Below, one piece after another: positions 8,307-15,016 of a stretch of DNA of 64,000 bases. The notes below the pieces were generated by a model. That model was not told where the DNA came from. It searched no databases and saw only the letters and a list, made by a program, of their open reading frames with translations. The stretch's first letter is position 1; each line of letters opens with the position of its first letter. This DNA is from Hyphomicrobiaceae bacterium (lineage in GTDB: Bacteria; Pseudomonadota; Alphaproteobacteria; Rhizobiales; Hyphomicrobiaceae). Where the stretch lies: assembly GCA_022844275.1 (NCBI GenBank), contig JALHMB010000001.1, positions 186,001 to 250,000 of the forward strand. The letters run 5' to 3'. The position numbers and the translations under genes are program-made.

Positions 8307-8576
8307 TCGCGCCTTCGGCGCAAGAGGGGCTGCCGCCCTTCAACTCCGCTCGGGGGACACCCCCGAACCCCCCGCCTTTTATGGACTTAAAGATCGCGGC
8401 CGACGGCTGTGTTGTCCCTTCTTCCCGATGGCGCGAGAAGGGACAGGGGGCGCTCACGTCAAGCGATTAAGTCATAATAGTCGGGTGGGTTCGGGAGGGT
8501 TTCCCTCCCGATGGAGCGCGAGGGTCATGTCGGAGACATGCCAGAGGCATCGCCCTCGCTCGCGCCGAAGGCGCGA
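8307..8576. repeat. Composite inverted-repeat element, copy A (BIME-like) between convergent genes
   Basis: TCGCGCCTTCGGCGC ... CTCGGGGGACACCCCCGAA / central TGTCCCTTCT...AGAAGGGACA / TTCGGGAGGGTTTCCCTCCCGA ... CGCGCCGAAGGCGCGA; related to copy B at 13829-14071. Confidence 0.75.
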
Positions 8577-11584: not shown

Positions 11585-11656
11585 CAATCCGCCGAGCCAT
11601 TCCCGGCTCACAACATGTCTGCAACGTACCGCGCCGCGCTACGCCTTCCCCGAGGC

Positions 11657-11689
11657 CGCGCGGCGCCCTCTTTCCAGAGGCGCCGCGCG
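11657..11689. repeat. Inverted repeat / possible terminator hairpin between msrB and the downstream peptidase
   Basis: CGCGCGGCGCC ... GGCGCCGCGCG, 11-bp perfect arms; no T-tract. Confidence 0.5.
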
Positions 11690-11704
11690 CCAGGAGTTAA
11701 CTGC

Positions 11705-13825
11705 ATGCCAGCCGAGCCCGCATCCGCCAAAACCATCGCACTGGTGCCGCCTCGTGCGCCGCGTCATCCCGTGACGGCAGTCCACCACGGCGTCGAGATC
11801 GTCGACGACTACGCTTGGCTTCGCGCTGAAAACTGGCAGGAGGTGATGCGCGATCCGAGCGTTCTCGATGCCGGCATTCGCGCCCATCTCGAGGCCGAGA
11901 ACGCCTACACCGAGCACATGCTTTCCGACACGAAAGCGCTGCGCGAAAAACTCTTCGCCGAGATGAAAGGGCGCATCAAGGAGGACGACAGCTCAGTGCC
12001 GAGTCCGGACGGCCCTTGGGAATACGGCACGCGTTTTCTCATCGGCGCACAGTATCCGCGCCTCACGCGGCGGCCACGCGGCGGCTCCGACGACACCGAG
12101 AGTGTCATGCTCGACGGCAATCTCGAAGCTGAAGGCAAACCCTATTGGCAGCTCGGCGGCGCCACGCACAGTCCCAACCATCGCATTCTCGCTTATGCGG
12201 TCGACGACAAGGGCTCGGAATACTACGTCATCAAGTTCCGCGATCTCGCGACGGGCAAGGACCTCGCCGATACGATCCCGGACACCGGCGGCGGCTGCGT
12301 GTGGACCGAGGACAGCAAGACGGTCTTCTACGTCCGCCTCGATGAGAACCACCGTCCTCTCTACGTCTACCGCCACACGCTCGGCACGCCGGTCGAGGCC
12401 GATGTGCTCGTCTACGAGGAGGCCGACAAGGGCTTCTACGTCGGCGTCGGCGAGACGCAGTCCGGCCGCTTCATTCTCATCGATGCCCACGATCATCAAA
12501 CGAGCGAAGTCCGCTTCATCGAGTCGCGCAATCCGACCGGGCCCATGCAGCTCATCAGCCCGCGCCGCTTCGGACACGAGTACTCGGTCGATCATCACGG
12601 CGATGATCTGATCATCCTCACAAACTCCGGCGGCGCCGAGGATTTCCGCATTGTCACGACGCCAGTCGCGACGCCGCAGGAGGCATACTGGCGCGAGTTG
12701 CTGGCGCACAAGCCAGGCCGGCTGATCCTCGATCACACGACCTTCAAGGACCATCTCGCACGCCTCGAGCGCGAGGGCGGCCTGCCGCGTATCGTCATTC
12801 GCCGCTTCTCGGACGGCGCGGAGCACGCCATCGCCTTCGACGAGGAGGCCTACAGCCTCGGCATGTCCTCGGGCTACGAGTATGACACGACCGCGCTGCG
12901 CTTCTCCTACTCCTCGATGACGACGCCCGCCCAGGTCTACGACTACGACATGGAGACGCGCGCCCGCGTTCTTCGCAAAACACAGGAAGTTCCGAGCGGG
13001 CACAATGCTGCCGACTACGTCACGCGCCGCATCGAAGCGCCGGCAGCCGACGGCGAGATGATCCCGATCTCCGTCCTCTACCACAAGAACACGCCGCTCG
13101 ACGGCTCCGCGCCGCTCTTCCTCTACGGCTATGGCTCGTACGGCATCGCGATACCCGCGAGTTTCTCGACGACGCGGCTTTCACTCGTCGATCGCGGCTT
13201 CATCTTTGCGATCGCTCACGTACGCGGCGGCAAGGACAAGGGCTATCGCTGGTACACGAGCGGCAAAGCCCAAACGAAGATGAACACCTTCACCGACTTC
13301 GTCGCTGCCGGCGAGCACCTCGTAAAGCTCGGCTGGACGAAGCGCGGGCGCATCGTCGCCAACGGCGGCTCGGCGGGCGGTATGCTCATGGGTGTCGTCG
13401 CCAATCTCGCGCCCGATCTCTTCCTCGGCATCATTGCCGACGTGCCGTTCGTCGATGTACTCAACACCATGCTCGACGAGACGCTGCCGCTCACGCCACC
13501 CGAATGGCCCGAGTGGGGCGATCCCATCCGCTCGGCCGAAGCCTTCGCGCTCATCCGCAGCTACAGCCCGTACGACAACGTCGAGCGCAAAGCCTATCCG
13601 CATATCTTCGCCTACGGCGGGCTCACCGATCCGCGCGTCACGTACTGGGAGCCGGCGAAGTGGATCGCGCGCCTGCGCGAACGCAACACGTCCGGCAACC
13701 TCGTGCTGCTCAAGACGAATATGGAAGCCGGGCACGGCGGCGCGTCGGGACGCTTCGAGGCGCTCAAGGAAACCGCGCTCGATTACGCCTTCGCGATTAA
13801 GATCGCGGGAAAGGCGGAGGTGTAG
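11705..13825 (+). CDS. ptrB: Oligopeptidase B / prolyl oligopeptidase family (S9A)
   Basis: APRHPVTAVHHGVEIVDDYAWLRAENWQEV, GRIVANGGSAGGMLMG nucleophile motif, NMEAGHGGASGRF. Confidence 0.93.
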   Translation: MPAEPASAKTIALVPPRAPRHPVTAVHHGVEIVDDYAWLRAENWQEVMRDPSVLDAGIRAHLEAENAYTEHMLSDTKALREKLFAEMKGRIKEDDSSVPSPDGPWEYGTRFLIGAQYPRLTRRPRGGSDDTESVMLDGNLEAEGKPYWQLGGATHSPNHRILAYAVDDKGSEYYVIKFRDLATGKDLADTIPDTGGGCVWTEDSKTVFYVRLDENHRPLYVYRHTLGTPVEADVLVYEEADKGFYVGVGETQSGRFILIDAHDHQTSEVRFIESRNPTGPMQLISPRRFGHEYSVDHHGDDLIILTNSGGAEDFRIVTTPVATPQEAYWRELLAHKPGRLILDHTTFKDHLARLEREGGLPRIVIRRFSDGAEHAIAFDEEAYSLGMSSGYEYDTTALRFSYSSMTTPAQVYDYDMETRARVLRKTQEVPSGHNAADYVTRRIEAPAADGEMIPISVLYHKNTPLDGSAPLFLYGYGSYGIAIPASFSTTRLSLVDRGFIFAIAHVRGGKDKGYRWYTSGKAQTKMNTFTDFVAAGEHLVKLGWTKRGRIVANGGSAGGMLMGVVANLAPDLFLGIIADVPFVDVLNTMLDETLPLTPPEWPEWGDPIRSAEAFALIRSYSPYDNVERKAYPHIFAYGGLTDPRVTYWEPAKWIARLRERNTSGNLVLLKTNMEAGHGGASGRFEALKETALDYAFAIKIAGKAEV

Positions 13826-13828
13826 GGG

Positions 13829-14071
13829 TCGCGCCTTCGGCGCGAACAGGGCTGCCGCCCTGTAACCCGCTCGGGGGACACCCCCGAACCCCCGTCTTTT
13901 ATAGTTTTGGCGCTCGCCTCGAACGCATCCGCATCCCCTCTCCCCGCATGCGGGGAGAGGGGACCTGTAGCGTTCGCCGCGAGCGATCAGATCATAAGGG
14001 CGGGTGGGTCCGGGAGGGTGTCCCTCCCGGTTGGGGCCAGGGGCGAAAGCCCCGTCGCGTCGAAGACGCGA
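13829..14071. repeat. Composite inverted-repeat element, copy B (BIME-like) between convergent genes
   Basis: TCGCGCCTTCGGCGCGA ... CTCGGGGGACACCCCCGAA / 28-nt perfect palindrome CCCCTCTCCCCGCATGCGGGGAGAGGGG / TCCGGGAGGGTGTCCCTCCCGG ... GGGGCGAAAGCCCC..TCGCGTCGAAGACGCGA. Confidence 0.78.
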
Positions 14072-14074
14072 AAG

Positions 14075-15016
14075 CTATTTCCCCCAGGTCAGCGCGAGAG
14101 GCTTCAGCTGACCAACGAGTCTCAGAAGCCCGTCTCGCGTCGCTGGGTGCAGAGCATCAAGAGGATGGCGCACCGTGTCGCTCTTGATCACGCCGCCCTC
14201 CATCATCACGGTCTTGGTTGCGCGGAGACCACACTGCCGATTCTCGTAGTTGATGAGCGGAAGGATGCGGGCATAGGCCTCCTCGGCCTCTTCCTTTTTG
14301 CCCGCGCGATAGCTCGTCACCACCGGCTTGATCAGATCGGGCAGCAGGGCGCTCGGCATCGTACCGGTCGCGCCCGCCTCGAGATCGGCCATCAGCGTGA
14401 TCGACTCCTCGCCATCCAATGGACCGACGATGGCATCACCGCCGGCCGCGATCAGGGCGCGCAACTTGGCTGCCGTACCCGGAACCTCGATCTTGAAATG
14501 GCTGACCAGCGGCACCTCGCGCGCCAGCCTGACAAGAAACGGCACCGACAATGCAACACCACTGAGTGGCGCGTCCTGCACCATGATCGGCAGGCGCGCC
14601 GCATCCGCGACGCGCGCGAAATGCTCGATCATGCCGGCTTCATCGGACTTGAGCAGCGCGCCGTGATAGGGCGGCATCATCATGAGCATGTCCGCGCCGG
14701 CTTCGGCTGCGCGCCGTGCCCTGGTCGAGGCGATGCGCGTGCTGAAATGACTGCACGTGACGATCACAGGCACCCGACCGGCGACATGTTTCAGCGAAAG
14801 ATCCAGCAGGACGTCACGCTCCTCGTCGGTGAGGAGGAACTGCTCGGAGTAGTTGGCGAGAATACATATGCCATCGACGCCCTGATCGATCATGCAGTCG
14901 ATCACGCGGCGCATGCCGTCGAGATCGAGATCACTGTTCGCCGCGAAAGGCGTGGGCGCGATAGGAAACACGCCGGAAAAGCTCTTCGGCATTTTGATCC
15001 TCTCAATCACCGGCAC
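14075..15016 (-). CDS. Dihydrodipicolinate synthase family protein (DapA-like aldolase/lyase)
   Basis: FSGVFPIAPTPFAANSDLDLDGMRRVIDCMIDQGVDGICILANYSEQFLLTDEERDVLL. Confidence 0.88.
   Translation of the reverse strand: MPVIERIKMPKSFSGVFPIAPTPFAANSDLDLDGMRRVIDCMIDQGVDGICILANYSEQFLLTDEERDVLLDLSLKHVAGRVPVIVTCSHFSTRIASTRARRAAEAGADMLMMMPPYHGALLKSDEAGMIEHFARVADAARLPIMVQDAPLSGVALSVPFLVRLAREVPLVSHFKIEVPGTAAKLRALIAAGGDAIVGPLDGEESITLMADLEAGATGTMPSALLPDLIKPVVTSYRAGKKEEAEEAYARILPLINYENRQCGLRATKTVMMEGGVIKSDTVRHPLDALHPATRDGLLRLVGQLKPLALTWGK

What the first reader, a model, noticed from the sequence alone, without database searches (positions are those of the whole stretch)
13829..14071. Copy B of the same element with a different central palindrome
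The gap between ptrB (+) and the DapA-like gene (-) carries the same arms: TCGCGCCTTCGGCGCGAACAGGGCTGCCGCCCTGTAACCCGCTCGGGGGACACCCCCGAACCCCCGTCTTTTATA on the left, and GGGCGGGTGGGTCCGGGAGGGTGTCCCTCCCGG...GGGGCGAAAGCCCCGTCGCGTCGAAGACGCGA on the right. The centre is replaced by a 28-nt perfect palindrome CCCCTCTCCCCGCATGCGGGGAGAGGGG. Conserved arms with swapped cores and compensated stems (GCGCCGAAGGCGC versus CGCGTCGAAGACGCG) suggest structural selection and modular mobility (REP/BIME-like). The core palindrome resembles a repeat type I recall as widespread in proteobacteria.
Basis: partly seen in the sequence, partly recalled or inferred. Interest (0 to 1): 0.6.

Follow-up and report, generated by a model that had tools for sequence, protein, structure and literature searches.

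The report
Triplex-motif repeat between convergent genes
The gap between two genes is filled by one copy of a dispersed bacterial DNA repeat built from two mirror-facing three-part hairpin units, and the way these units vary across 20-odd related genomes suggests that evolution preserves a three-stranded DNA fold and not only a hairpin.

Summary
Window 13829-14071 is one copy of a dispersed composite repeat that fills the gap between convergent genes, 3 nt from each stop codon. It consists of two inverted ~76-nt units (types Y and Z) around a 28-nt palindrome. A covariance model finds 60 units in 1.93 Mb of this genome. All 5 genomes of the genus, 32 of 103 of the family and 7 of 298 sampled from the order carry it. 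Units sit just after stop codons (24 of 52 within 10 nt; 0.8 expected). Dimers are Y/Z heterodimers (22 of 24 typed). No RAYT transposase is detectable in the genus.

The core belongs to a separate repeat, the known BoxC/PIT intrastrand-triplex element; this copy is a collapsed hairpin lacking the third strand. New here: hairpin 3 plus tail of each unit also has triplex grammar. The tail is the mirror complement of the purine arm across a 3-nt loop. The rule held in 21 further genomes (53 mirror, 4 against, 5 ties). BoxC cores show three-position covariation (94 of 94). Triplex formation in cells, function and dispersal mechanism are inferred, not shown. Novelty: new variant of a known kind.

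The parts
13829..13905 (+). Unit Y (left half): hp1 13829-13845, hp2 13846-13863, hp3 13871-13887, third-strand segment CCCCC 13889-13893, T tract 13897-13900
   Evidence: RNA fold gives exactly hp1/hp2/hp3, z -4.3; CM match 86.3 bits
13873..13893 (-). Class-I-like intrastrand triplex motif of unit Y, read on the - strand: GGGGG (third) TTC GGGGG TGT CCCCC; only 5 triads
   Evidence: Sequence; mirror rule tested
13904..13934 (.). Left linker, pairs with the right linker
   Evidence: Central stem in RNA and DNA folds; linker length quantised over copies
13935..13962 (.). Core: 28-nt perfect palindrome CCCCTCTCCCCGCATGCGGGGAGAGGGG, a collapsed BoxC/PIT copy without third strand
   Evidence: Exact match; fails the widened PIT pattern; full-length relatives aligned
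13963..13989 (.). Right linker
13990..14071 (-). Unit Z (right half, inverted): hp1 14055-14071, hp2 about 14040-14053, hp3 14010-14030, third-strand segment 14002-14008
   Evidence: Fold z -4.7; CM match G000:C1:199990-200071:-, 72.1 bits
14002..14028 (+). Class I intrastrand triplex motif of unit Z: GGGTGGG (third) TCC GGGAGGG TGT CCCTCCC, 7 triads including one T*A-T
   Evidence: Sequence; rule tested
8307..8576 (.). Copy A of the same composite element (Y unit, degenerate single-hairpin core, Z unit with an enlarged hp2)
11615..13825 (+). ptrB-like gene (S9 prolyl oligopeptidase family); its stop is 3 nt before hp1 of unit Y
   Evidence: Pfam PF02897 and PF00326; ORF list
14075..15016 (-). 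DapA-like gene (DHDPS family); its stop is 3 nt from hp1 of unit Z
   Evidence: Pfam PF00701; ORF list

Best explanation
The element is a non-autonomous, composite intergenic mosaic repeat. SHOWN by comparison: two inverted units (Y, Z), each hp1 + hp2 + hp3 + tail + T tract; the hp3 arm and tail obey a mirror rule with a 3-nt loop, the sequence grammar of an intrastrand triplex (class I purine motif on one strand, equivalently class III pyrimidine motif on the other); the enclosed core derives from a separate BoxC/PIT (class II) repeat that has collapsed to one hairpin here; units sit right after stop codons, mostly between convergent genes. INFERRED: when the DNA is single-stranded (replication, transcription, recombination) each unit folds into two hairpins plus a short triplex, and this fold is what is selected or copied. 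Y/Z heterodimers predominate because identical arms would make long perfect palindromes that are unstable. Modules are gained, lost and swapped at gene ends by a RAYT-independent route (recombination or template switching at palindromes, or an unidentified transposase), and positions after stop codons are where they are tolerated or useful, probably as 3'-end hairpin arrays on transcripts.
For: Units and copy number. Pair covariation. Folding of the copy: z -9.9 RNA, -8.7 DNA. Mirror rule, discovery set: 87 of 128 units fit perfectly at loop 3 and 23 at loop 4; asymmetric arms 24 mirror, 2 against, 3 ties. Further genomes: loop-3 score 0.914 against 0.41-0.60 at other offsets, 53 mirror, 4 against, 5 ties, 0 of 5000 tail permutations as good. 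BoxC/PIT core: arm, counter-arm and third strand vary together as C/G/G (50) or T/A/A (44), no mixed case, loop always 3. Core independent of arms: 18 of 26 loci free-standing. Heterodimers: 22 of 24 typed dimers, expected fraction 0.46, p = 3e-6. Gene-end position: 24 of 52 within 10 nt after a stop against 0.8 simulated; 22 of 249 convergent, 14 of 1062 tandem and 0 of 247 divergent gaps. Turnover and module swap at orthologous sites. No RAYT in the genus.
Against: No experiment here. For E. coli BoxC/PIT, PMC4666352 reports triplex formation by isolated oligonucleotides but no support for stable triplex in vivo, and cites earlier work finding no promoter or terminator activity. Type Y has only 5 triads, below the 6-nt minimum of the ITxF search in that paper. 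About 30% of interruption bases are not canonical purine-motif triads (for example C*A-T), and some of these are parse errors. Related copies are not independent: the core covariation rests on two subtypes, the unit rule on about 8 main arm classes. 18 of 90 unit sequences could not be scored in the confirmation set. Tests used a relatedness-blind permutation. Gene calls are from my own simple caller, and short convergent gaps by themselves favour closeness to stop codons. Absence of both repeats from about 0.5 Mb of C1 argues against frequent current transposition.
Confidence: 0.6

Rival explanations
1. RNA-level element: each unit is a 3'-UTR hairpin array, a (bidirectional) transcription terminator and/or mRNA 3'-end protector for the gene that reads into hp1; the hairpins are selected in RNA, and the tail plus U tract may form an RNA pyrimidine-motif triplex or terminator.
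For: hp1 directly follows sense-oriented stops; at least 4 T within 22 nt after hp3 in 112 of 143 units; no units in divergent gaps; RNA folds of the units are stable.
Against: The U tract is about 10 nt beyond hp3, unlike a standard intrinsic terminator, and the mirror relation prevents a full alternative arm-tail hairpin. Interruptions fit the DNA purine motif (A*A-T, T*A-T, T*C-G) more often than the RNA pyrimidine motif. E. coli PIT elements had no terminator activity (cited in PMC4666352). Tail-outward dimers sharing hp1 meet the genes the other way round.
Confidence: 0.35
2. MITE: non-autonomous DNA transposon moved by a DDE transposase through terminal inverted repeats.
For: In G159 (other family) three near-identical copies end in 18-20-bp inverted repeats CAGGGC[A/C]ATTCAATTCTC, and two of the three are flanked by 8-9-bp direct repeats (ATCAAGCGA; CCCCGTTAT) (read by eye).
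Against: No such inverted repeats or target duplications seen around copies in the genus of the window; units are often solo; no autonomous element with these ends found in G159.
Confidence: 0.15
3. G-quadruplex repeat: the G-rich strand of the Z unit (GGGTGGGTCCGGGAGGG) is selected as a G4.
For: Type Z has four G3 runs with short loops.
Against: Type Y (68 of 105 typed units) has only two G5 runs; the hp3 stem is kept by compensatory changes; a G4 does not need the interruption to move to the mirrored position (53 to 4).
Confidence: 0.08
4. RAYT-mobilised REPIN/BIME.
For: Inverted dimers, gene-end location and subtype heterodimers resemble REP dimers described in PMC3733652.
Against: No Y1_Tnp match in 5 of 5 genus genomes while 5 of 14 control genomes ring; only 3 of 18 other carriers have one, and the four loci hold no unit; no GTAG tag; unit is ~76 nt, not 20-40.
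Confidence: 0.03
5. Ordinary unrelated GC-rich hairpins.
For: High-GC genome with many hairpins.
Against: Long, specific sequence similarity over many loci and genomes; structure and covariation beyond shuffles.
Confidence: 0.01

Closest known systems
BoxC / PIT / TM_ECO intrastrand-triplex repeats (Holder et al. 2015, PMC4666352)
   Same: Core family: C-rich arm, G-rich arm, 3-nt loop, G-rich third strand (GGGGAGAGGGTTAGGGTGAGGGG), often inverted pairs, intergenic, unstable; collapse of pairs to a simple hairpin is reported there as a 'palindrome effect'.
   Different: Class II order, hairpin loops of 3-6 nt there; here loops are longer and a T/A/A subtype exists. The arm units have class I order (third strand 5'), extra hairpins hp1 and hp2, a T tract, and stop-codon adjacency.
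REP / BIME repeats, GTAG and CGTC superfamilies (Di Nocera et al. 2013, PMC3733652)
   Same: Inverted dimers, heterodimers, location between unidirectional and convergent ORFs near 3' ends; CGTC REPs, mainly alphaproteobacterial, also lack a transposase.
   Different: Larger multi-hairpin unit (~76 nt against 20-40), no conserved tag outside the stem, stems of different sequence, triplex-like tail.
Br-REP1 and flanking palindromes of Bradyrhizobium (PMC5082802)
   Same: Three palindromes in overlapping 3' UTRs of convergent genes, mosaic spread in Alphaproteobacteria, transcribed.
   Different: Consensus CCGGAATCTCGAGATTCCGG is unrelated in sequence; no triplex tail described.
Bacterial MITEs
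   Same: Short non-coding inverted-repeat elements; the G159 copies have terminal inverted repeats and probable target duplications.
   Different: Not seen in the genus of the window.

Membership tests
BoxC/PIT (TM_ECO) | Pattern CCCTCNCCC-N-GGGNGAGGG-N3-GGGNGAGGG (core relatives) | tested here: met
   18 matches in 1.93 Mb with the first loop widened to 2-12 nt; 0 with the published 3-6 nt
BoxC/PIT (TM_ECO) | The 28-nt core of this copy itself carries the third strand | tested here: not met
   Pattern absent on both strands of the core region; it is a collapsed derivative
Intrastrand triplex motif, class I (arm units) | Third strand, purine arm, pyrimidine arm in this order, loops 1-6 nt, triad-compatible sequence | tested here: met
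   Mirror rule with 3-nt loop in two data sets
Intrastrand triplex motif, class I (arm units) | Stem of at least 6 nt (ITxF criterion in PMC4666352) | tested here: inconclusive
   Z and most family-level arms have 6-7 positions; Y has 5
Intrastrand triplex motif | Triplex forms physically | not testable with these tools
   Needs CD, NMR or footprinting
REP/REPIN (RAYT-associated) | RAYT (Y1/IS200-type) transposase in the genome, linked to the repeats | tested here: not met
   PF01797 absent in 5 of 5 genus genomes, controls positive; the few in other carriers are unlinked
REP (GTAG or CGTC) | Unpaired GTAG or CGTC tag next to a 20-40-nt palindrome; CGTC stems begin with AT | tested here: not met
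   CGTC occurs in Y tails only, not in Z; stems are GC runs
MITE | Terminal inverted repeats and target-site duplication | tested here: not met
   Not seen in the window's genus by inspection; present in G159
RIME / ABC intergenic mosaic elements of rhizobia | Sequence identity to published RIME or ABC units | not tested
Rfam families | Score above gathering threshold | tested here: not met
   Only a tRNA matched in the window

The most novel reading that the evidence does not exclude
Two repeat families, the arm units (class I order) and the BoxC/PIT cores (class II order), both keep a three-strand register through compensatory change, so intrastrand triplexes would be a selected or copied structure in living cells. 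A whole family of bacteria would carry them as modular elements at gene ends.
Probability: 0.5. Interest if true: 0.75.

Novelty: new variant of a known kind. Interest (0 to 1): 0.55.

Why it matters
BoxC/PIT repeats have been known for decades, but whether the triplex ever matters in cells is open; the paper read here found no support for stable triplex in vivo. Third-strand covariation over many genomes is an evolutionary test that does not depend on catching the structure, and the new family gives natural variants for direct tests. The element is also a clean case of modular, RAYT-free intergenic repeats that may shape gene ends. I found no description of the arm family in the papers searched.

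Tried and rejected
Rfam scan: nothing but a tRNA. RAYT search in the genus and in other carriers: none linked. Autonomous element with the G159 terminal repeats: not found. Chromosomes of E. coli gave no BLAST match to the core (the relation to BoxC is by pattern), and plasmids only a 48-base piece of the core in two Sinorhizobium records. Alternative RNA hairpin between hp3 arm and tail considered and rejected because the relation is mirror, not reverse-complement. Tail as a duplicated hp3 arm rejected for the same reason: duplication gives direct or inverted copies, not mirrored ones. Gene context in other genomes was attempted with a crude ORF caller and is unreliable (27 'inside' calls), so it is not used as evidence. 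Orthologous ptrB loci: G002 lacks the element after ptrB but has a different downstream gene, so it is not a clean empty site.

Full report
1. Observation. The four quoted strings occur once each at the stated positions. The gap between the ptrB-like gene (S9 prolyl oligopeptidase, stop at 13825) and the DapA-like gene (DHDPS family, stop at 14075) is 249 nt. The element fills 13829-14071, three bases from each stop codon. The window lies in a 6.08-Mb genome of 24 contigs. Its ptrB is closest to a Rhizobiales MAG (73%) and to Hyphomicrobium (72%), so I take the host as Hyphomicrobiaceae or near it.

2. Anatomy. The element is two inverted copies of one unit. Read outward-in, a unit is hp1 (TCGCGCCTTCGGCGCGA), hp2 (GC hairpin, several sequence versions), hp3 (GGGGG-ACA-CCCCC in type Y; GGGAGGG-ACA-CCCTCCC in type Z; a third type GGGG-AGA-CCCC), a C-rich tail and a T tract. 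Both folds support this: single units fold to exactly three hairpins, the full copy has z -9.9 as RNA and -8.7 as DNA, and the DNA fold is hp1-hp2-hp3, a long central stem, then hp3-hp2-hp1. On 60 units from this genome 13 of 18 pairs show changes on both sides, 94.2% of cells pair, and none of 500 shuffles or slid versions comes near. The model's own alignment leans towards its structure, but an effect of this size is unlikely to come from that alone.

3. Copy number and spread. BLAST gives 75 matches in the genome. In 1.93 Mb of it nhmmer finds 52 units and the covariance model 60. All five genomes of the genus carry the element, 32 of 103 genomes and 15 of 25 genera in the family, and 7 of 298 sampled from the order, four of them outside the family.

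4. Dimers and modules. Units occur alone, as tail-inward dimers, or as dimers that share one hp1 (17-bp overlap). Of 24 dimers with both units typed, 22 are Y/Z (expected fraction 0.46, p = 3e-6). As suggested for other REP dimers in PMC3733652, unlike arms avoid long perfect palindromes; that reason is inference. Linkers in tail-inward dimers are mostly about 30, 90 or 180 nt: no core, single-hairpin core, full core. The full core is a 118-bp near-palindrome found at 26 loci, 18 of them without units; those next to units sit at a spacing of 27-35 nt.

5. What the core is. Its G-rich strand contains GGGGAGAGGGTTAGGGTGAGGGG, the BoxC/PIT/TM_ECO motif described as a class II intrastrand triplex (PMC4666352). 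This 23-mer occurs in 10 of 299 sampled genomes of the phylum, up to 50 copies, with no hit for the reversed control. In G000 and G003 the arm, counter-arm and third strand change together: 50 C/G/G and 44 T/A/A, no mixed case out of eight possible combinations, loop always 3. The 28-nt palindrome of this copy keeps only one hairpin and fails the pattern. The same paper reports collapse of inverted pairs to simple stem-loops.

6. The tail is a third strand. I asked what the odd C-rich tail does. In Y the arm is GGGGG and the tail CCCCC. In Z the arm is GGGAGGG and the tail CCCACCC. Elsewhere in the family the pairs are GGAGGG/CCTCCC, GGGAGG/CCCACC, GGCGGG/CCACCC, GAGGGG/CTCCCC and GGGGGA/CCCCCT. 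The interruption sits at the same place read in parallel, so on the opposite strand the tail is the mirror of the purine arm: third strand, 3-nt loop, purine arm, 3-nt loop, pyrimidine arm. PMC4666352 defines this order as class I. In the discovery set 87 of 128 units fit perfectly at loop 3 and 23 more at loop 4; asymmetric arms gave 24 mirror, 2 against, 3 ties. I then took units from 21 carrier genomes, nearly all not used before (one G013 locus overlaps), and applied the rule: 53 mirror, 4 against, 5 ties; loop 3 scores 0.914 while other offsets score 0.41-0.60; none of 5000 permutations matches it. The parser was adjusted between the two runs and 18 of 90 sequences could not be scored. 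A duplication cannot make a mirrored copy, so shared ancestry of a few classes or selection for a three-strand register remain; about eight main arm classes obey. Interruption bases fit the DNA purine motif (A*A-T, T*A-T, T*C-G) more often than the RNA pyrimidine motif, though a sizeable minority fit neither. That T*C-G is tolerated in the purine motif is from my own memory of the triplex literature.

7. Location. With my own gene caller (1560 genes), units lie in 22 of 249 convergent, 14 of 1062 tandem and 0 of 247 divergent gaps (p = 2e-8 convergent against tandem). In 24 of 52 cases hp1 starts within 10 nt after a sense stop; random placement in the same gaps gives 0.8. Part of this follows from short convergent gaps (residual gaps about 30 nt), but in most tandem gaps too the element sits closer to the stop than to the next start.

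8. Dynamics. I compared 40 regions of G003 that contain units with this genome. Fourteen orthologous gaps could be matched. One is a near-empty site (24 nt in G000). In two, G003 has a unit dimer where G000 has a free BoxC core after the same gene. Some sites share an element. At one site G003 keeps one half plus core and G000 core plus the other half. The G003 regions were chosen for having units, so these counts are biased towards G003-only cases. About 0.5 Mb of contig C1 and the ends of C2, with lower GC, lack units almost entirely, which argues for slow turnover.

9. Mobility. No Y1 transposase in the genus while controls ring. Three of 18 other carriers have one, without units nearby. 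In G159 three near-identical copies carry terminal inverted repeats, and two have 8-9-bp direct repeats. A DDE transposase can therefore probably carry such a dimer, but this is not seen in the genus.

10. Judgement. The thing is real, structured, modular and located at gene ends. It is best placed as a new composite relative of intrastrand-triplex (PIT) repeats, with REP/BIME-like organisation but without the RAYT link. Triplex folding in the cell, the function at gene ends and the copying mechanism are inferred. No experiment was run and none of the evidence is transcriptomic.

Noticed in passing
L244, L234, L267 (G003) and G000 C2:579032-579189, C2:709573-709827: A further intergenic repeat, roughly GCCGCGGGCTGCTGGGAAGGGGTGCTG...GTGCTATGCCCGCGGC, sits next to or in place of the units.
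   Followed up: no
G159, L272, L273, L275: Three near-identical dimers end in 18-20-bp inverted repeats CAGGGC[A/C]ATTCAATTCTC; two have probable 8-9-bp target duplications. A MITE that carries the dimer.
   Followed up: partly
L246:3375-3474; L267:9684-9782; G000 C2:552783 region; C1:400290 core: hp1-like hairpin modules are inserted inside hp3 or inside a BoxC core, that is nested palindromes.
   Followed up: no
G000 C1 about 517000-1017676, C2 0-100000 and 800000-908579: Lower-GC stretches nearly free of units and with few or no full cores, although both families are common elsewhere; older core genome against accessory or terminus region?
   Followed up: partly
G000 C1:467476-467613, C1:495179-495314, C2:222525-222656: In hp1-sharing dimers gene stops lie at or overlap the tails (by up to 5 nt), so the element may donate the stop codon.
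   Followed up: no
G001:C151:5285-7019: ptrB matches in two pieces at different identity (73% and 89%): frameshift, assembly fault or mosaic.
   Followed up: no
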